Source of the DNA: Saxibacter everestensis
GTDB lineage: Bacteria > Actinomycetota > Actinomycetes > Actinomycetales > Brevibacteriaceae
Direction of reading: 5' to 3'
Assembly: GCF_025787225.1 (NCBI RefSeq)
Contig: NZ_CP090958.1
Coordinates: forward strand, 248,001-312,000
DNA: 64,000 nt
Shown here: positions 22,679-29,513 of the stretch, one piece after another
How the letters are laid out: every line of letters starts with the position of its first letter
Position numbering within the stretch: position 1 is the stretch's first letter
Notes under the pieces: generated by a model
Database searches by the model: none
Seen by the model: only the letters and a program-made list of their open reading frames with translations
What the model was told of the DNA's origin: nothing
Made by a program: the position numbers and the translations under genes

Positions 22679-22810
22679 TCACCAGAACTGCTGTTCGTCC
22701 TCTTCCTCCTGGGCGGAGCGCAGCCGATTGAGCAGGAGAGTCTGCGACGCGGTGGACCCGGCGGGATCTTCACCCCCGTCGACGACGCTGTCCTTTTGCG
22801 ATAGCCGTTG
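22679..22810 (-). other. Coding-like +1 frame after the methyltransferase
   Basis: In the +1 frame relative to the methyltransferase, an open stretch crosses its stop codon and ends at a TGA at 22679. It reads as an acidic tail (…LLLNRLRSAQEEEDEQQFW). It has no ATG, GTG or TTG start of its own. It would be reached only by a +1 shift, perhaps at the CAAAAGG run near 22795, or if a base had been gained there. It may equally be chance. Confidence 0.25.
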
Positions 22811-25547
22811 TCAGCGGACTGGTCAGCTCCTCATATCGGGTGAAGAGGACTTCCTGACGATCTAGCTCTGTGGAGAGTCTCCGGTCTCCGGCGAATGCCT
22901 GGTCCACTAGCTGATCAAGCGCGTCGTGCGCCTCTATGAGCTCAGGAGCCATCGCGTCCGGCCGGTAGTGCTCCGCAAGCGACTTTTCGGGCTGCATTTC
23001 CCGGGCATTGATCACGCCGAGGCCCGCGTCGATGATCTTCTCGCGAAGGGCAGCGTCAACTGCGGGCATCGGGAAGTTGTTCCACACGATTGTGTTGGAG
23101 AACCGTAGATCAGACTTGATCCGACCGCCGATCATTCGTTGCCAGGTGATGAACATTGTCGAGGAGATGATCGCGAATAGGTAGCCGTCGGGGTCTTCAG
23201 CCGTGAAATTGGCGTCCCCACAGATCACCGATTCGGCAAACCTGCTGGCGGTGAAGTACAAACGGTTTTCCGAGACATGCCGAGGGATCGCGAGGTAAGC
23301 GACGCGTGGCTGTCGATCATACTGGAAACGGTGAGACCATTTTGCTGCCTTGTTCGTGGCCACATCTGAACTTGCCTCCCGCATTGCTTGCACGCGAAGT
23401 ACTCGTTCCCGCACTTTGAACTGATCTAGAACGGTTTCCGGGGCGTCTGGGAGCCAAAGACACCACCTCTCCGACCCTTCGATGAGTTCAGTGGCCCCAA
23501 CGTATGGCCTGACATACGGTGCAACTGTCGCATCCGAACTCAAATCCCGAGCCTCGTTGCGCCCAAACAGCAAGTTGCCGCCGTCGGTCGGCTTACTTCC
23601 GTAGACAACAGTAGGCAGCCCGGGAAGGGGCTTCATTCGTTTCCCCACGAGCTGGTTCGAGCCGTCGAGCAAGTAGGCGTTGATATTGGTGACGAGCTCT
23701 TCCCGAGGTGGGAGCCCAGGCGAGTCATAGTTAAACAGCCGCCGTTTGCCACCAGTGTCCCGTGAAAAGCCCACGATCACGCAGTGCACAGCTGCCTTGC
23801 CTGAGGCCTCCGAGGTCCAGGCAAAGGTCCGATGTGCAAACTTGATACGCCAGCCATCGCGAAAAATCGGCCGGAAGAGCGCCGGTACTGCTTGTCCCTG
23901 CGTGATCGAGTTGGTTGTCACGAAGGCCCACCGTGCGTCCGTGTCCCTTAAGAGGTCTAACGTCTTCGCGTGCCACGAGGTCACGTAGTCCAGGTAACCG
24001 TCGTAGTCGGCTCCCCACGCCTGCCTGGCGTCGGCGGCCTGCTCGTCCGTCTTGGTGTACTGGCCGATGAACGGCGGGTTGCCCGCGATCACTAGGCCGT
24101 CGGACGCCGGAACGATGCGACTCCAATCCAACCTGGTTGCATTTCCTACCACAATGGTTGCTTGCTGCTGGATCGGTAACCGGTCTGGAGCCCAGCCGAG
24201 CCGCTCGGTGAGCTTGAGATCGCACTGCCGGTCGATCAGGAACATGGCGGTCTCGGCGATACGAGCAGGCCATTCGTCGATTTCGATGCCGTAGAAGTGG
24301 TCGAGAGTAACTTTGAGGCCGACATTTGCCAACAGCATTGGGCTGTCCCGGGTGATCTCCTGCAGACGCTCCATGATTGCCAGTTCGATATCACGAAGTT
24401 CTCGGTAGGCCACGATGATGAAGTTGCCGCAGCCGCAGGCAGGATCCATAAAACGAATCTCGCCTAGCTTGTCTCGCAGTTTGCGAAGCCGGTCTGCCTC
24501 GTGCTTGCCGAGGGTCTTGATGTGTTCGAACTCTGCCCGCAACTCGTCCAGGAAGAGCGGGTTCAGAGTCTTGAGGATATTTTCTTCGGATGTGTAGTGC
24601 TCGCCTAGCTCGCGCCGGGTCTTGGCATCACGGACAGACTGAAACATCGATCCGAAGACGGCGGGGCTGATGGTGCTCCAGTCCCCCGCGCATGCTTCGA
24701 GGATGACGGTTCGAAACTCAGCGTTGATGGCCGGCAGGGAGATTCGCTCGCGAAAGATGCCGCCATTAACGTAGCGGAAGCCGTTGAACGCCGACTGCTT
24801 CGCCTCACGCTCGTCCGGCGGTGTATCGAGATAGACAAATAGATCGGACAAGTGTTCGCCGAGGTCAGAACCATCGGGCGCTGTGTACTCGTCAACGAAG
24901 TCGCGGAACGTATCCCGCTCCCACATCCCGGTGTCGTCACCAAACATTAGGAACAAGATCCGGGCGAGGGTCACCGAGATCTGGTGATCACGGATCTTAA
25001 GGTCAAAACTCTTCGGATAGGCCTTCTCAATGGCGGCATACATGCGTGCCATCAGTTTCGAGGCATGCCGGGTTTCGTTTTGGGCTTCGACATCGAACGC
25101 AGTCCGAACTTTCGTCAGAACGGAGTTAGCGTCAAGCGTTACATCGGTCGGCAGCGCGATTGCGTCGAGTCGCGCGGCGAACTTCGGGTTCGTCGTGCCA
25201 CGACGATGGCGGTGACTGGTCAGCCGTGTGGCCGTTGAGTTGTTCCTGGTGTGGCGAGCTGGCCAGCGCCATACCTGGTCGTCGCCGTTGTGGAAAATGA
25301 CCAGCCGGTCGGTGGAGGTCTTGGAAATCAGCCGATCCAGTGCCGCTTCGATCTTCGAGCCGGGCTTGTCGTCACATACCCACACCCGGAGGCCCTTGTA
25401 GGAGGAGACATTGGTGGCGATGAAGGTGCTCCCGTCATCGTCGGTGTACGTGATCGGAGGATGATCGGGTGCACTCCAGTTCAAGTCATGCAGGAAGAGC
25501 TGCTGGTATAGGTGCTGCTCGACGAGGGACATTTGACTGTCAGTCAT
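22770..25547 (-). CDS. MmeI-like class I DNA methyltransferase (adenine-N6 type)
   Basis: 925 residues. An N-terminal ~150-residue region (DRLVIFHNGDDQVWRWP) and a helical region precede the methyltransferase core: SAM-binding motif I DPACGCGNF near residue 400 (usual form DPACGSGNF) and catalytic motif IV GNPPFIG near residue 520. A long C-terminal target-recognition-like region follows. Size and layout match MmeI/type IIG-like enzymes. I see no certain PD-(D/E)xK nuclease motif at the N-terminus. Its ATG overlaps the stop of the PLD-SNF2 helicase gene (ATGA), so the two are one operon. It probably methylates host DNA to mark self while the helicase protein acts on unmarked DNA (inference). 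The region looks less GC-rich than its neighbours. Confidence 0.88.
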   Translation of the reverse strand: MTDSQMSLVEQHLYQQLFLHDLNWSAPDHPPITYTDDDGSTFIATNVSSYKGLRVWVCDDKPGSKIEAALDRLISKTSTDRLVIFHNGDDQVWRWPARHTRNNSTATRLTSHRHRRGTTNPKFAARLDAIALPTDVTLDANSVLTKVRTAFDVEAQNETRHASKLMARMYAAIEKAYPKSFDLKIRDHQISVTLARILFLMFGDDTGMWERDTFRDFVDEYTAPDGSDLGEHLSDLFVYLDTPPDEREAKQSAFNGFRYVNGGIFRERISLPAINAEFRTVILEACAGDWSTISPAVFGSMFQSVRDAKTRRELGEHYTSEENILKTLNPLFLDELRAEFEHIKTLGKHEADRLRKLRDKLGEIRFMDPACGCGNFIIVAYRELRDIELAIMERLQEITRDSPMLLANVGLKVTLDHFYGIEIDEWPARIAETAMFLIDRQCDLKLTERLGWAPDRLPIQQQATIVVGNATRLDWSRIVPASDGLVIAGNPPFIGQYTKTDEQAADARQAWGADYDGYLDYVTSWHAKTLDLLRDTDARWAFVTTNSITQGQAVPALFRPIFRDGWRIKFAHRTFAWTSEASGKAAVHCVIVGFSRDTGGKRRLFNYDSPGLPPREELVTNINAYLLDGSNQLVGKRMKPLPGLPTVVYGSKPTDGGNLLFGRNEARDLSSDATVAPYVRPYVGATELIEGSERWCLWLPDAPETVLDQFKVRERVLRVQAMREASSDVATNKAAKWSHRFQYDRQPRVAYLAIPRHVSENRLYFTASRFAESVICGDANFTAEDPDGYLFAIISSTMFITWQRMIGGRIKSDLRFSNTIVWNNFPMPAVDAALREKIIDAGLGVINAREMQPEKSLAEHYRPDAMAPELIEAHDALDQLVDQAFAGDRRLSTELDRQEVLFTRYEELTSPLTTAIAKGQRRRRG

Positions 25548-28500
25548 GCGTCACGGACTCCAATCGAGCAAACGATCTTGATGTTGTCGGATTCTGAAAA
25601 TTTGATGACAAGCCGGTCTTCCTCGTGAAGCTGGTTAAGTAAGACGGCAAGATCATCGGGGCTGTAGCGGTTGCGTCGGGCCTGGCTCAAACGCATTGTG
25701 GCGTGCTCAGTAAGCGGGCGCTCATGCAGAGCGTTGATGGCGTCCGGTGCCTTGTCCGAGAAAAGCGTGTCGCCGCCTAGCCGCTCCCACGCCCACTTGC
25801 GTACGCCCTTAAGGTTGCCGTCGGCGAGAGCCTCGACCGTCAGGGGACCGTGAATCAGTGAACGTTGTCGTTCGAAGTGATCATGTCGCTGCTCGGCGGT
25901 TGGAGTGTCGACCTGTGCTTCGAAGACGCGCATGGCTTCGAGTGGGGTGAGCAACTTTTCCTTGGCGATTCCATCGGCGTCGTCGGCGGCCGCCGAGGTG
26001 GCGAAGGCGTCGACCCCCGAGTCGGTAGAGACGTAGCAAGTGACGCCACCATGGCTTTCGGCAACATATGGCTCGCGGCTGCTGTGGATCATGTCCTGCA
26101 TCCCGAGCACGCGATTGACGATCTGCGGGTATTTCGTTTGCGCGTTGGACCAGACGAGCCAAGCTTCGCTGACCGCGTCGGCCTCGCCGTCGGCGTCTTC
26201 GGCGTCGTCGCCGACCCTGCCCTTGTAGAAGTCGTCGAGAATCTTGACCTCTTGATCACCGCCAAAGAACTGCTCGTCAGAGCCGAACGCTTCAGCCGAG
26301 GTGCCCAGACGGGCTCGGATTCGCTGGCGGAGGTTGATCTGCTCTTCGACCTTGTCATGGCTGATCAAGTAGACAAAGACAGTGTCAGACTTTTGGCCGA
26401 TTCTGTCGACGCGCCCGGCGCGTTGAATGATACGGATGATTGCCCACGGTAGGTCGTAGTTAACGACGATGTGTGCGTCCTGCAGGTTCTGGCCTTCCGA
26501 GAGCACATCCGTTGCGATGAGCACGTTGATCGGATCGGCCACGTGGATCTCGGGTTCGTTTTGCCCAGGGATCGTGTTCGAGTGAGGAGAAAACCGCCGG
26601 GCGACCTCGGCGGGGTTTTCGGTGTTGCCGGAGACCAGGCCGACACCTGCGATGCCAGCATCTTGGAGGGCTTGGGCGACGTACTCGGCGGTGTCGACGT
26701 ACTCGGTGAAGACAATTACCTTTTCGCCGGGATGTTCATTTCGTAGCAGGTCGACAAGAGCATTGACCTTCGAGTCGCGAGTCGGGTCCCAGCTCCCAAA
26801 CCGCTCAAGTAAAGCTGTCAGCTGTTCGTTGTCTTTCTGCAGGTCTTTGCGGAGGGCAGTCTTAAATACGGTTGAGTTGATCCATTTCGTCTTGCCAGGC
26901 AGCGTCTTCTGTAGCTCGGCATAGCGGCTCGCCAGTGAACCATGGGTTGTGGCACCGTCTTCGACGTCCTCGTCGTTGATGTTGATCTGCTTATCGCTGA
27001 AGCTCCCTAGAGGGATCGGGAGCCTATTGGCGATGGCATGGAGGAATAGCTCGTTACGGGCGCGCTGGCGTTGCAGGGACAGGATGAACGAGTGACCCGA
27101 CGACGACAGACGCTTGAATAGGCCGGTTCGAACGAATCCGCTGACGTTCCCACGACCCGAGCGAATGTCGTCGATGATCTTGCTGTCCGCATTGGTATGG
27201 GCAGCGCGGGGGTCGTCGTAGTCTGCGAGGCGGTACCTCGGCAAGATCAATGCATGCACCGCGTTGAGGGTGGTGTCGTCTTCCATCAGGCGTGCCGGAT
27301 CGTCGTCCGCAAAGTCGTGGCTGAGCGGGCGGGCGATCCGGGTCGGGAAAAAGAATTTCTGCCCGTTGGCAAATTGCAGGAACTGTCGCTCATCAGTCGT
27401 CCCGTCAGGCAGCGTGACTTGCTCTGTCCTGGCTGTGCGTTTGACGAAGCTGCGGGTGCGCCGGACCAGATGATCGCTCATCAGGCGTCGCCAGTCCTCG
27501 GTATGTTCGGATCGTCGGAACGCTGCGAGGGTGTTGATCTTGCCGTCGACCTTGTCGCGCAAGCCGGGGTCGCTGGTCAGCGCGGCGATCGGAACGATGC
27601 CGAGGTCCTCGTCCTCGTCGATGTATAGCGCAATCTGGTTGGCCACATCCAGGAAAGCGAGGTTGTACGGGGTAGCGGTCAGCAGCAGAACCTTCGAGCT
27701 GTTACGGCGGATGTATTCGTGAATGGCTTGGTAAGCAACGGTCCCGTTATTGCGAAGATTGTGGGACTCATCGCAAATCACCAGGTTGAATCGCTTGAGT
27801 TCCGGCAGCACCTTGTCGGCCATCGAGTACGGAACAACGCGGCCGTTGATGTCGTATTCATCGAGGTGCTTCGTCCACATCTGCTCAAGGTTCTTCGGAC
27901 ACAACACCAGCGTGGAGTAGTCCTCGGCGGCTTGGAGCATCAGGGCGGTGGCGATGGCCGTCAGCGTCTTGCCGAGGCCGACGACATCGCCGAGCATCGT
28001 GCCGCCTCGCCGAACGATGCGCCTGGCGAGAGTGCGCACGGCGCTTTCCTGATAGTCGAGCAGCAGGGTGTGCATGGAGGCCGGCAGTACATAGCCCAAG
28101 CCATCGCGTGCGTCCTGCGACAGCGCGTGACAGACCTTTAGGTAAACCTCGAACGGCGTCGGCTGCTCGCCGGACGCCCAGGATTCGGCAATCAGCTCGA
28201 TTATCTCGGCAGTGATCGTCAGGGAGAAACGATCGGTCCAGCGGGCCTCGAACCAATCGGCAACCTTCGCGTTTGCGTCGGAATCCTGCACGTCAATGTT
28301 GAGCTCGAGGTTGGACGTCATTCCAGCCCGTGTGAGGTTGGATGAGCCCACGTACGCCCACCGTGACCCGTGCTTCTTGTCGGGGGCGTGGAATAGGTAG
28401 GTCTTGCCATGCAGCGGCTTCTCCGTGAACACCTTCATCTGCACGCTGCCGTCTTCGAGCTGGCGTTTGAGCGTTTGCAGTGTGGCTTGTCCATCGGCTG

Positions 28501-28861
28501 TGGCCAGACCCCGCATCAGCTGATTGCGTAGATGCTTGACGAGCTGGTCGCGTCGGGTACGAGCCTTTTCGAGGTCATGGATGTCCGAACCATAGGCGGC
28601 CGGTTGGACGTCGTGTTGAAGAGAATCGAGAATCTGCTGTGAGTCGGATGGTGCGACCATCCCCACGAGCACTCGTGCGATTGGTCGTCCGGACAGTGCG
28701 GTCGGCGCTGGTTTAGTGTCGATGATGTCCGCCAGAGCGGACCAACCGCGCAGATCGAGGTAGCCAGTCGCGATGTCGACCGTGTCGAAGTCTTTGAGGG
28801 ATTCGCGTAGGGCAGGGCGGAGTCGGGTGTCGTCGGCGATGTTGTCGAAGATGTTGGGCAT
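25544..28861 (-). CDS. PLD nuclease-SNF2 helicase fusion protein
   Basis: 1105 residues. Residues ~1-240 contain a phospholipase-D-type nuclease domain: the HxK motif in PLHGKTYLF, followed by YVGSSNLTRAG and NLELNI. From ~265 comes an SNF2-type helicase: Walker A GDVVGLGKT, DESH box ICDESHN, motif III LLTATP, motif V IATDVLSEGQNLQ and motif VI QRAGRVDRIGQ. A ~250-residue C-terminal region is unassigned. The fusion recalls DISARM components (DrmC PLD, DrmD SNF2), but no drmA or drmB genes are present. First gene of a two-gene operon with the methyltransferase. Likely role: ATP-dependent translocation and cleavage of foreign DNA (inference). Confidence 0.88.
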   Translation of the reverse strand: MPNIFDNIADDTRLRPALRESLKDFDTVDIATGYLDLRGWSALADIIDTKPAPTALSGRPIARVLVGMVAPSDSQQILDSLQHDVQPAAYGSDIHDLEKARTRRDQLVKHLRNQLMRGLATADGQATLQTLKRQLEDGSVQMKVFTEKPLHGKTYLFHAPDKKHGSRWAYVGSSNLTRAGMTSNLELNIDVQDSDANAKVADWFEARWTDRFSLTITAEIIELIAESWASGEQPTPFEVYLKVCHALSQDARDGLGYVLPASMHTLLLDYQESAVRTLARRIVRRGGTMLGDVVGLGKTLTAIATALMLQAAEDYSTLVLCPKNLEQMWTKHLDEYDINGRVVPYSMADKVLPELKRFNLVICDESHNLRNNGTVAYQAIHEYIRRNSSKVLLLTATPYNLAFLDVANQIALYIDEDEDLGIVPIAALTSDPGLRDKVDGKINTLAAFRRSEHTEDWRRLMSDHLVRRTRSFVKRTARTEQVTLPDGTTDERQFLQFANGQKFFFPTRIARPLSHDFADDDPARLMEDDTTLNAVHALILPRYRLADYDDPRAAHTNADSKIIDDIRSGRGNVSGFVRTGLFKRLSSSGHSFILSLQRQRARNELFLHAIANRLPIPLGSFSDKQININDEDVEDGATTHGSLASRYAELQKTLPGKTKWINSTVFKTALRKDLQKDNEQLTALLERFGSWDPTRDSKVNALVDLLRNEHPGEKVIVFTEYVDTAEYVAQALQDAGIAGVGLVSGNTENPAEVARRFSPHSNTIPGQNEPEIHVADPINVLIATDVLSEGQNLQDAHIVVNYDLPWAIIRIIQRAGRVDRIGQKSDTVFVYLISHDKVEEQINLRQRIRARLGTSAEAFGSDEQFFGGDQEVKILDDFYKGRVGDDAEDADGEADAVSEAWLVWSNAQTKYPQIVNRVLGMQDMIHSSREPYVAESHGGVTCYVSTDSGVDAFATSAAADDADGIAKEKLLTPLEAMRVFEAQVDTPTAEQRHDHFERQRSLIHGPLTVEALADGNLKGVRKWAWERLGGDTLFSDKAPDAINALHERPLTEHATMRLSQARRNRYSPDDLAVLLNQLHEEDRLVIKFSESDNIKIVCSIGVRDA

Positions 28862-29192
28862 CTAGCTTTTCCCCGAACTGTGTGCGGCGCTAGCCCGCAT
28901 GGCACTCGTCGCATCGATCGGGGAACCCGGAGTGCCAATCTCGAGGAACAGGGTTCTCGACCACGCCACAATCTCCGGAAGCTCTTCGATGAGAGTTTTT
29001 GCCACGCCATTGCTCCTAGCTGTTCACCCGTGTGGCATGGCTGAACTGTCCGGCCCCGTGGTAGATCGTTGGAGCGCTCGGCTGGATATCCGATGGGAAA
29101 AGCCGCGTCGATCCGAGGGGAGGAGGTCAAGTCTCGTTAATGCCACATATATGTGGCTGACTCTATCGTGATTGCCGCTTGAAGTTGTAACA
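28862..29192. promoter_or_regulatory. Divergent control region of the helicase/methyltransferase block
   Basis: 331 bases between the helicase gene (-) and the XRE gene (+). No convincing gene is seen, though a minus-strand frame overlaps the helicase start. A perfect 16-base palindrome, GCCACATATATGTGGC, lies at 29142-29157, 35 bases before the XRE start codon. Its central TATATA-like core could also serve as promoter sequence, so a bound regulator would block transcription. It is the obvious candidate operator for the XRE protein. Confidence 0.6.
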
Positions 29193-29513
29193 GTGAGCGA
29201 CGTGTCGGCAGGTGAAGCAGCAGTTGCCGTACGACTGGCGGAGATACTGCGGGGCTTTCGGGATCAGGGTGGCCCATCCGGGAAGCGCTACACCCAGGAA
29301 CAGGCCGCCGAGATCATTGGAATTACCCGCACGCATCTGCAGCGCCTGGAGCGCTCCGGCGGCAGCGTTGCCCGTGACCGATATGAGAATCCGACCTACA
29401 CCACGCTGGTGGCCATCTCGGGCTTTCTGCAGCGCCCGGTAGCCGATCTGGTCGACGAACTGGAATCGGCGCGAGCGGACACAGAGAAACGCTCAAACCC
29501 GGACGAAAGGTAG
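29193..29513 (+). CDS. XRE family regulator, controller-like
   Basis: 106 residues. An N-terminal/central helix-turn-helix (YTQEQAAEIIGITRTHLQRLER, about residues 33-54) followed by a helical segment (TTLVAISGFLQRPVADLVDEL), the usual Cro/C1 fold. Short XRE proteins beside modification genes often act as controllers that delay restriction until DNA is methylated. It is divergent from the PLD-SNF2/methyltransferase operon and has a palindrome just upstream, so control of itself and of that operon is likely (inference). The GTG at 29193 is the most plausible start; a TTG at 29172 is possible. Confidence 0.75.
   Translation: MSDVSAGEAAVAVRLAEILRGFRDQGGPSGKRYTQEQAAEIIGITRTHLQRLERSGGSVARDRYENPTYTTLVAISGFLQRPVADLVDELESARADTEKRSNPDER

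What the first reader, a model, noticed from the sequence alone, without database searches (positions are those of the whole stretch)
22770..29513. Compact PLD-SNF2 helicase plus MmeI-like methyltransferase block with an XRE controller
Seen: a 1105-residue protein joining a PLD nuclease domain (HGK...GSSNLT) to a complete SNF2 helicase, overlapping by ATGA with a 925-residue DNA methyltransferase, and a divergent XRE gene. Known: DISARM uses separate DrmD (SNF2), DrmC (PLD) and a methyltransferase, plus DrmA/DrmB. Here nuclease and helicase are fused and drmA/drmB are absent. Inference: a minimal two-gene restriction-modification or DISARM-like defence system. It sits among purine and sulfur genes and looks lower in GC than its surroundings, which suggests horizontal arrival.
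Basis: partly seen in the sequence, partly recalled or inferred. Interest (0 to 1): 0.75.

Follow-up and report, generated by a model that had tools for sequence, protein, structure and literature searches.

The report
Two-gene motor-nuclease restriction-modification system
Two neighbouring bacterial genes encode what looks like a DNA-marking enzyme and a matching DNA-cutting motor that together destroy unmarked foreign DNA, and a small shared domain appears to let the motor be paired with different marking enzymes.

Summary
In detail: a 1105-aa PLD-SNF2 protein overlaps by ATGA a 925-aa MmeI-like adenine methyltransferase, next to a divergent XRE gene, in a lower-GC block not found there in 8 relatives. 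DISARM is the wrong frame; it is best read as an ATP-dependent restriction-modification system. The MTase is MmeI-like from residue ~158 on, but MmeI's nuclease domain is missing and a different ~154-aa domain sits there. That domain was found at 77 of 84 PLD-SNF2 loci from many phyla, on different MTase cores; eight unlinked MmeI-like relatives lack it, and 22 of 23 plasmid records carrying it also carry PLD-SNF2. It co-diverges with PLD-SNF2 more than the rest of the MTase does. One Cryobacterium locus keeps both but has another MTase core. I infer that the domain docks the motor-nuclease onto the site-recognising subunit. MmeI's published code predicts NCGR(m6A)G. The pairing was noted on a Lactococcus plasmid (PMC6098607), and PLD-SNF2 fusions occur in BREX-related systems (PMC12839542): a new variant of a known kind. 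Nuclease action, docking and motif are untested.

The parts
25544..28861 (-). PLD-SNF2 protein, 1105 aa: predicted restriction subunit (nuclease plus dsDNA motor)
   Evidence: ORF; Pfam PLDc_2, RE_NgoFVII, SNF2-rel_dom, Helicase_C; catalytic residues invariant in 56 of 56; AF2 model pLDDT 83; SNF2-type matches over residues ~249-896, RapA 8so8 over 231-1105
28238..28480 (-). PLD nuclease region, aa 128-208 (single HxK ... GSSN ... E motif, so presumably works as a dimer)
   Evidence: PLDc_2 and RE_NgoFVII
26243..28099 (-). SNF2/SF2 motor, aa ~255-873
25547..26242 (-). C-terminal region, aa ~874-1105, possibly RapA-like; role unknown
   Evidence: RapA 8so8 aligned to residue 1105, but rmsd 20.9 A over 503 residues; secondary structure; residues outside 249-896 are barely tested by that list
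22770..25547 (-). MmeI-like N6-adenine methyltransferase with target recognition domain, 925 aa, no MmeI_N nuclease domain
   Evidence: PDLC03598 matched only from residue 152; MmeI 5hr4 Z 45.1, rmsd 6.6 A over 740 residues, 38% identity, residues 158-912
25086..25547 (-). N-terminal ~154-aa domain shared by PLD-SNF2 partners; proposed docking domain
   Evidence: no Pfam hit over it at E<=1
23733..24503 (-). MTase catalytic domain, aa 349-605 (DPACGCG, NPPF)
   Evidence: PF20473; motifs in the sequence
23061..23663 (-). Target recognition domain, aa 629-829; Y649 K652 R756 D778 A779 K811 D813 R815 predict NCGR(m6A)G
   Evidence: PF20466; with the code in PMC4833311
25544..25547 (-). ATGA stop/start overlap of the two genes (translational coupling inferred)
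29172..29513 (+). XRE/HTH_3 gene, 113 aa, divergent; possible local regulator
   Evidence: HTH_3; no match at E<=1e-5 in 8 relatives' purS regions, none at E<=1e-3 in the other loci held
29142..29157 (.). GCCACATATATGTGGC perfect palindrome, candidate operator between the divergent genes
   Evidence: only exact copy in the genome; one other place with 2 mismatches; 0.09 expected in the window at up to 3 mismatches

Best explanation
An ATP-dependent restriction-modification system made of two subunits. The MmeI-like protein (M) recognises a short asymmetric site, predicted NCGRAG, and methylates its adenine on one strand. When the site is unmethylated, the PLD-SNF2 protein (R), held to M by M's N-terminal domain, translocates on the DNA and cuts with its PLD nuclease when two complexes meet. 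M therefore serves both modification and restriction, as in Types I and III. Shown here (computed): domain make-up, intact motifs, absence of M's own nuclease domain, linkage, co-divergence, different MTase cores behind the same N-terminal domain, insertion. Inferred: docking, translocation, two-complex cutting, protection against phages.
For: Linkage: the M N-terminal domain is found in 77 of 84 PLD-SNF2 loci (80 genome loci plus 4 plasmid loci), 63 of 70 if the 14 loci used to build the profile are left out; 73 times on the same strand within 2 kb downstream, 4 times upstream. In the reverse direction, 22 of 23 plasmid records with the domain have PLD-SNF2, 21 within 0.7 kb and one at 3.2 kb with the gene split by an inversion; some records are near-copies. 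Lost nuclease: MmeI_N in 6 of 6 unlinked relatives scanned, D..ExK invariant in 7 of 7 aligned, no MmeI_N in the window protein at E<=1. Core exchange: Cryobacterium L042 has PLD-SNF2 (46-54%) and N-terminal domain (35-51%) closest to the actinobacterial clade (13 best rows each) but an Eco57I-type core, 38% to L082 against 17-20% to 15 MmeI-type cores; its PLD-SNF2 lies beside the MmeI-partner clade (SH-aLRT 95 for that clade, 100 for both; midpoint root). Co-divergence (Spearman) with PLD-SNF2: N-terminal domain 0.95, spacer+MTase 0.80, TRD -0.05 in the MmeI group (15 loci, 105 pairs); 0.46, 0.24, -0.16 in the Eco57I group (38 loci, 528 pairs). In 4 of 4 loci of the L045-L048 clade the MTase gene falls into two frames near a CCGA/CGGA/TC repeat; such switching is tolerable only if R depends on M. 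Site empty in relatives.
Against: No biochemical or phage data exist for this pair. PLD-SNF2 without the M domain occurs: 7 of 84 loci, of which L065, L073 and L092 (Nostocales) had 2-10 kb of downstream sequence and L084 1.4 kb. The domain occurs without PLD-SNF2 in Calothrix AP018277, at a contig end in G270, and weakly (E 7e-6) in G383, whose PLD-SNF2-like hit is on another contig. PMC6560206 says that Synechocystis PCC 6803, which carries a relative pair on pSYSX, does not express an active R-M system, and the passages I saw do not credit that MTase with a motif. No complex was modelled. Co-divergence values come from non-independent pairs, only 54 of 84 tree rows had a complete MTase, and a fast TRD lowers its own value. 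L045-L048 are metagenome bins, so frames at repeats may be assembly error.
Confidence: 0.75

Rival explanations
1. A reduced DISARM system: SNF2 (DrmD-like), PLD (DrmC-like) and MTase, with drmA/drmB lost.
For: Same enzyme classes; DrmD models hit the helicase at 120 bits and 134.5 bits, nearly as well as the best other models; DrmMI hits the MTase at 77 bits.
Against: The DrmD hit is far under the curated 610-bit cut-off. No MZB domain within about 870 kb, only helicase-motif matches to a DrmA model, no PADLOC hit in 9 flanking genes. The 84 related loci show their own PLD-SNF2 plus MTase arrangement; I did not scan them for drmA/drmB.
Confidence: 0.05
2. A BREX-related (Type-2 BR) system or its remnant: HKD-Swi2/Snf2 helicase with N6-MTase, DUF499 ATPase and DUF3780 (PMC12839542).
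For: Same helicase architecture (HKD nuclease at the N-terminus, then SNF2) as described there and seen here.
Against: No DUF499 in the whole genome (1 of 14 control genomes rang). The MTase is MmeI-type, not the BR type with a DUF1156 helical domain. 7 large neighbours of relatives scanned have no DUF499 hit. The DUF3780 search was uninformative.
Confidence: 0.06
3. Two independent enzymes: a protective or regulatory orphan MTase beside a modification-dependent (Type IV, SauUSI-like) PLD-SNF2 nuclease.
For: SauUSI joins PLD and SF2 motor in one chain and cuts modified DNA (PMC7913695, passages); PLD-SNF2 without the M domain exists in Nostocales.
Against: Close linkage, gene overlap, absence of the MTase's own nuclease and co-divergence of its N-terminal domain with PLD-SNF2.
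Confidence: 0.08
4. A stand-alone Type IIG/IIL restriction enzyme, as PADLOC labels it, beside an unrelated helicase.
For: PADLOC PDLC03598 REase_MTase_IIG, 922 bits.
Against: The match begins at residue 152, whereas an unlinked enzyme matches the same model from residue 5; no MmeI_N nuclease domain.
Confidence: 0.03

Closest known systems
PLD-SNF2 plus Type IIG-like methylase operon, orf33-orf34(-orf35) of Lactococcus plasmid pLd8 (PMC6098607)
   Same: Same pairing; the authors found no restriction domain in the methylase and proposed that the PLD-SNF2 protein carries it; they also compared it with DISARM (section 10 read in full).
   Different: Described only as a putative R-M system of one plasmid with similar operons elsewhere; its sequence is not held here, so homology was not tested. 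The section read does not mention a shared N-terminal domain, exchange of MTase cores, or an MmeI core.
Type IIL enzyme MmeI
   Same: Spacer, MTase, TRD and C-terminal domain; 38% identity, Z 45.1, rmsd 6.6 A over 740 residues.
   Different: MmeI has its own N-terminal PD-(D/E)XK nuclease domain, residues 1-155 (PMC4833311); here another domain stands there and a separate PLD-SNF2 gene is linked.
CglI / NgoAVII
   Same: PLD nuclease plus SF2 motor acting in an R-M system at an asymmetric site (PMC5737866, abstract and introduction part 1).
   Different: There R (PLD plus B3 recognition domain) and H (motor with Z1) are separate proteins; here PLD and motor are fused and recognition lies in the MTase.
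SauUSI (Type IV)
   Same: PLD nuclease fused to SF2 motor (PMC7913695, passages).
   Different: SauUSI has its own recognition domain and cuts methylated DNA.
Type-2 BREX-related (BR) systems
   Same: HKD-Swi2/Snf2 fusion as effector with an N6-MTase (PMC12839542).
   Different: BR systems carry DUF499 and DUF3780 and a DUF1156-type MTase; DUF499 is not found here.

Membership tests
DISARM | DrmB (MZB/DUF1998) beside the other genes | tested here: not met
   PF09369 in the genome only at 1145332 and 2771832, the window being 248001-312000; no PADLOC hit in 9 flanking genes
DISARM | DrmA helicase beside the other genes | tested here: not met
   One of several DrmA models finds only short helicase matches, the best being PLD-SNF2 itself; no PADLOC hit in 9 flanking genes
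DISARM | DrmD-type SNF2 helicase above curated cut-off | tested here: not met
   NF038317 134.5 of 610 bits
Type IIL (MmeI) | MTase, TRD and C-terminal domain in one chain | tested here: met
Type IIL (MmeI) | N-terminal PD-(D/E)XK nuclease in the same chain | tested here: not met
   No MmeI_N at E<=1, model match from residue 152, profile comparison with seven nuclease N-termini finds no similarity; a degenerate nuclease fold was not excluded
BREX-related Type-2 (BR) | DUF499 ATPase | tested here: not met
   0 matches in the genome; 1 of 14 control genomes rang
BREX-related Type-2 (BR) | DUF3780 protein | tested here: inconclusive
   0 matches, but no control genome rang
BREX-related Type-2 (BR) | HKD nuclease fused N-terminally to SNF2 helicase | tested here: met
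CglI/NgoAVII | Separate R (PLD-B3) and H (SF2-Z1) subunits | tested here: not met
   PLD and SNF2 in one chain; no B3 or Z1 family among the hits at E<=1
SauUSI (Type IV) | Cuts only modified DNA | not testable with these tools
   A linked MTase argues against it; needs an assay
ATP-dependent R-M system (general) | Cognate modification and restriction at the same site | not testable with these tools
   Needs methylome and cleavage assays
ATP-dependent R-M system (general) | Intact nuclease, motor and MTase motifs in linked genes | tested here: met

The most novel reading that the evidence does not exclude
The ~154-aa N-terminal domain is a portable adaptor: fused to an adenine MTase with a TRD (MmeI-type or Eco57I-type, in one clade a repeat-switched split form), it stands in place of the enzyme's own nuclease and recruits the PLD-SNF2 motor-nuclease. 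This turns a single-chain Type IIL/IIG enzyme into the guide subunit of a two-subunit ATP-dependent restriction machine. MTases of this kind now labelled 'Type IIG restriction enzyme' would then be guides without nuclease, and specificity could be re-targeted by exchanging everything after the adaptor.
Probability: 0.55. Interest if true: 0.65.

Novelty: new variant of a known kind. Interest (0 to 1): 0.55.

Why it matters
It would show how single-chain restriction enzymes and multi-subunit ATP-dependent ones can interconvert by exchange of one N-terminal domain, correct the 'restriction enzyme' label on a group of MTases found in many phyla, and give a modular motor-nuclease whose target is set by an exchangeable, code-readable recognition domain. 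A concrete motif (NCGR-m6A-G) makes it testable with one methylome.

Tried and rejected
DISARM, BREX-related and stand-alone IIG readings were tested and set aside. I first thought that the Synechocystis pSYSX MTase might be the one with a published GA(m6A)GGC motif; the passages seen assign slr6095 to another motif and do not credit the pSYSX gene of L113, so that idea was dropped (the gene name slr6050 is recalled; a search for it found no paper). That the N-terminal domain is a dead PD-(D/E)XK nuclease: its predicted helices and strands could fit, but profile comparison with seven nuclease N-termini gave no similarity and the fold list did not cover it; left open. Searching the domain in another phylum was not possible; plasmids were used instead. 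The XRE gene as a conserved part: no homologue at E<=1e-3 in the loci searched. The DUF3780 search was uninformative. In the phages collection no record covers 80% of PLD-SNF2. Viral contigs was not searched. The Foldseek list for PLD-SNF2 added nothing beyond SNF2 motors and RapA. Literature: 10 searches. Those that joined PLD or phospholipase with SNF2 or helicase and MTase, IIG, DISARM or MmeI returned nothing or, of relevance, PMC6098607, PMC12839542, PMC12458937, PMC11090510/PMC10542128 and PMC7913695; three unrelated papers and PMC12715929 in those lists were not opened. None seen describes the shared domain, but of most only passages were read, and subscription papers are not held.
Full report
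What is there. On the minus strand, 25544-28861 encodes 1105 aa and 22770-25547 encodes 925 aa, overlapping by ATGA; a 113-aa HTH gene runs the other way at 29172-29513. Pfam finds PLDc_2 and RE_NgoFVII at aa ~128-208, SNF2-rel_dom and Helicase_C in the first protein; MmeI_hel, MmeI_Mtase, MmeI_TRD and MmeI_C but not MmeI_N in the second; HTH_3 in the third. In 56 aligned sequences H151, K153, GSSN 172-175, E186, the Walker A stretch G291-K298, D364-E365 and Q813-R814-G816-R817 are invariant.

Surroundings. The block lies between purS and a metallo-beta-lactamase-fold gene among purine and sulfur genes (gene names of the neighbours other than purS and the lactamase-fold gene are from my reading of the sequences). 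In G397, same family, the lactamase-fold gene lies directly beside purS (about 70 bp between the aligned parts); in 8 of 8 relatives' purS regions taken (L165-L172, one of them a short contig; 17 of 19 relatives had the purQ match), no match to the MTase, PLD-SNF2 or HTH gene was found at E<=1e-5. GC is 0.592 against 0.642 for the rest of the window, and 5 of 540 overlapping same-size windows in a 10% sample of the genome are as low. The genome has one copy. This supports horizontal arrival. Between the divergent genes lies GCCACATATATGTGGC, the only exact copy in the genome.

How widespread. In 396 genomes of the phylum 47 have PLD-SNF2 matches at E<=1e-20, but only G074 is a full-length relative above 50% identity; G263 (47 and 45%) is cut by contig ends; the other rows listed are at or below 45%, nearly all at or under 38%, and many partial. 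A scan of genome contigs with A1 found 215 relatives, 80 kept, from Actinomycetota, Cyanobacteriota, Chloroflexota, Pseudomonadota and others. 628 plasmid records have some match, 20 of them over 80% of the query.

The partner. 65 of 84 loci have an MTase-motif ORF of 300 aa or more within 5.5 kb of PLD-SNF2, mostly the next gene in the same direction; 17 of the 19 others have under 3 kb of sequence downstream. In actinobacterial relatives at or above 47% identity the MTase has an MmeI-type core (14 loci, the window and L137), with L042 the exception. Elsewhere it is about 1100 aa long; the three scanned (of L075, L105, L113) are Eco57I-type and match PADLOC PDLC03628, and the others were judged by length, motifs and alignment. 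In L045-L048 the MTase lies upstream.

The N-terminal domain. A profile of the first ~154 residues, built from the window and 14 loci, finds the domain in 77 of 84 loci at E<=1e-3 (63 of the 70 not used in the profile), always on the strand of PLD-SNF2: 73 times within 2 kb downstream (50 within 300 bp), 4 times 3.3-4.8 kb upstream (L045-L048). Two of the 77 (L091, L098) are weak or broken hits of 20-26 bits. The 7 misses are L065, L073, L084, L089, L092, L104, L106; L089, L104 and L106 have under 800 bp downstream. Plasmid searches started from the domain itself (two queries, E<=1e-3) hit 23 records; 22 carry PLD-SNF2, 21 of them within 0.7 kb; some are near-copies (four Synechocystis records identical over the query). 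The exception is Calothrix AP018277, whose upstream gene is a D5-type protein. In NZ_CP063660 PLD-SNF2 is split by an inversion: residues 1-892 are on the minus strand and a plus-strand gene before the MTase is 93% identical to residues 907-1151 of the PCC 6803 protein. In 396 phylum genomes the domain was found in 4: G000 and G074 linked, G270 at a contig end without PLD-SNF2, G383 a weak hit on a short contig without it (its PLD-SNF2-like match is on another contig).

Contrast with unlinked relatives. 11 of 396 phylum genomes have MTase matches at E<=1e-40. Besides G000 and G074, eight of the nine were read around the match (G065 was not fetched) and show no PLD-SNF2 match at E<=1e-8 in 16 kb. 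Their MTases do not carry the domain (best 3.5 bits); MmeI_N is present in 6 of 6 scanned and D..ExK is invariant in 7 of 7 aligned (L135, a broken gene, left out). Their homology to the window protein starts at residue 122-194. PDLC03598 matches an unlinked enzyme from residue 5 and the window protein from 152. So the linked enzymes have another domain where the nuclease would be.

Coupling. The N-terminal domain co-diverges with PLD-SNF2 (Spearman 0.95 in the MmeI group, 15 loci; 0.46 in the Eco57I group, 38 loci) more than the spacer+MTase part of the same chain (0.80, 0.24) or the TRD (-0.05, -0.16); leaving out any one locus keeps the advantage over spacer+MTase (0.10-0.17 and 0.18-0.24). 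Only 54 of 84 tree rows had a complete MTase, and in the Eco57I group 528 of 703 pairs could be scored. Pairs are not independent; over all groups together the N-terminal domain and the core correlate with PLD-SNF2 about equally (0.81 and 0.77), as group membership dominates there. Cryobacterium L042 is a natural chimera: its best-matching N-terminal domains (35-51%) and PLD-SNF2 (46-54%) are actinobacterial, but its core is Eco57I-type (38% to L082; 17-20% to MmeI-type cores). The tree puts it next to the MmeI-partner clade (16 rows, support 95; midpoint root).

Phase variation in relatives. In L045-L048 the MTase gene falls into two frames near (CCGA)12.5, (CGGA)16.2, (TC)12.5 or an imperfect CGGA array. 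Switching M off is safe only if R cannot act without M, which speaks for a shared-specificity machine. These are metagenome bins; the frame state may be an assembly matter. The window has no such repeat.

Structure. The MTase model (pLDDT 86) matches MmeI 5hr4 from residue 158 on with Z 45.1, rmsd 6.6 A over 740 residues; residues 1-153 are barely tested by that list. The PLD-SNF2 model (pLDDT 83) matches SNF2 motors (1z63 Z 19.3, rmsd 19.1 A over 387; 8oo9 Z 18.6, 3.8 A over 386) and RapA 8so8 over 231-1105 (Z 16.9, rmsd 20.9 A over 503).

Predicted site. PMC4833311 (passages read) gives MmeI's code: Y642/K645 position 2, E751/N773 position 3, R810/A774 position 4, E806/R808 position 6, with K/R751+D773 giving G at 3 and K806-D808 giving G at 6. 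By alignment the window has Y649/K652, R756/D778, R815/A779, K811/D813, hence N-C-G-R-A-G with the adenine methylated. Position 2 is less sure, by the paper's own words (similar residues there go with different bases), position 1 is left open, and T752, well conserved in the family, is H757 here. The residues vary among relatives, as expected of changing specificities.

Mechanism. M keeps recognition and methylation but has no recognised nuclease domain; R has nuclease and motor but no recognised target domain; so R is most likely guided by M. MmeI methylates one strand of its asymmetric site (recalled). That leaves one daughter duplex unmodified after replication; Type ISP and III enzymes cut efficiently only between sites in a given orientation (PMC5737866 introduction). 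I infer such a requirement here; a PLD with one HxK per chain needs a dimer for one active site, as discussed for CglI.

Known or new. The pair was noticed on Lactococcus pLd8 and compared with DISARM (PMC6098607, section 10 read in full). HKD-Swi2/Snf2 fusions with MTases, DUF499 and DUF3780 are described as Type-2 BR systems (PMC12839542, sections 29 and 30 and passages). New here, as far as the listed searches show: the shared N-terminal domain where the nuclease would be, its co-divergence with the motor, the core exchange, the repeat-switched relatives, and the predicted site.

Noticed in passing
L045 1249-1340, L046 2183-2232, L047 6805-6829, L048 6437-6501: Partner MTase genes of the L045-L048 clade are split into two frames near tetra- or dinucleotide repeats, suggesting phase-variable versions of the system.
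   Followed up: partly
L198 4307-9529 (NZ_CP063660 116306-121528): In Synechocystis PCC 7339 the PLD-SNF2 gene is split by an inversion: its first part is on the minus strand and its last ~245 residues are on the plus strand before the MTase gene; possibly a switched-off state.
   Followed up: partly
L065, L073, L092 (Nostocales): Open PLD-SNF2 genes without the MTase N-terminal domain within 2-10 kb downstream; orphan restriction subunits or a distant partner.
   Followed up: no
L113 16291-18545 (pSYSX): A ThiF-family, E2/UBC-family and multiubiquitin-domain gene set lies just beyond the Synechocystis PLD-SNF2 and MTase genes, as annotated.
   Followed up: no
L131 6569-9370 (G307): An unlinked MmeI-like enzyme of the same order, 48% identical, is reported with one in-frame TAA in its match, though an open frame of 934 aa was read there.
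   Followed up: no
window 29142-29157: Perfect 16-bp palindrome, the only exact copy in the genome, between the PLD-SNF2 and XRE genes.
   Followed up: yes
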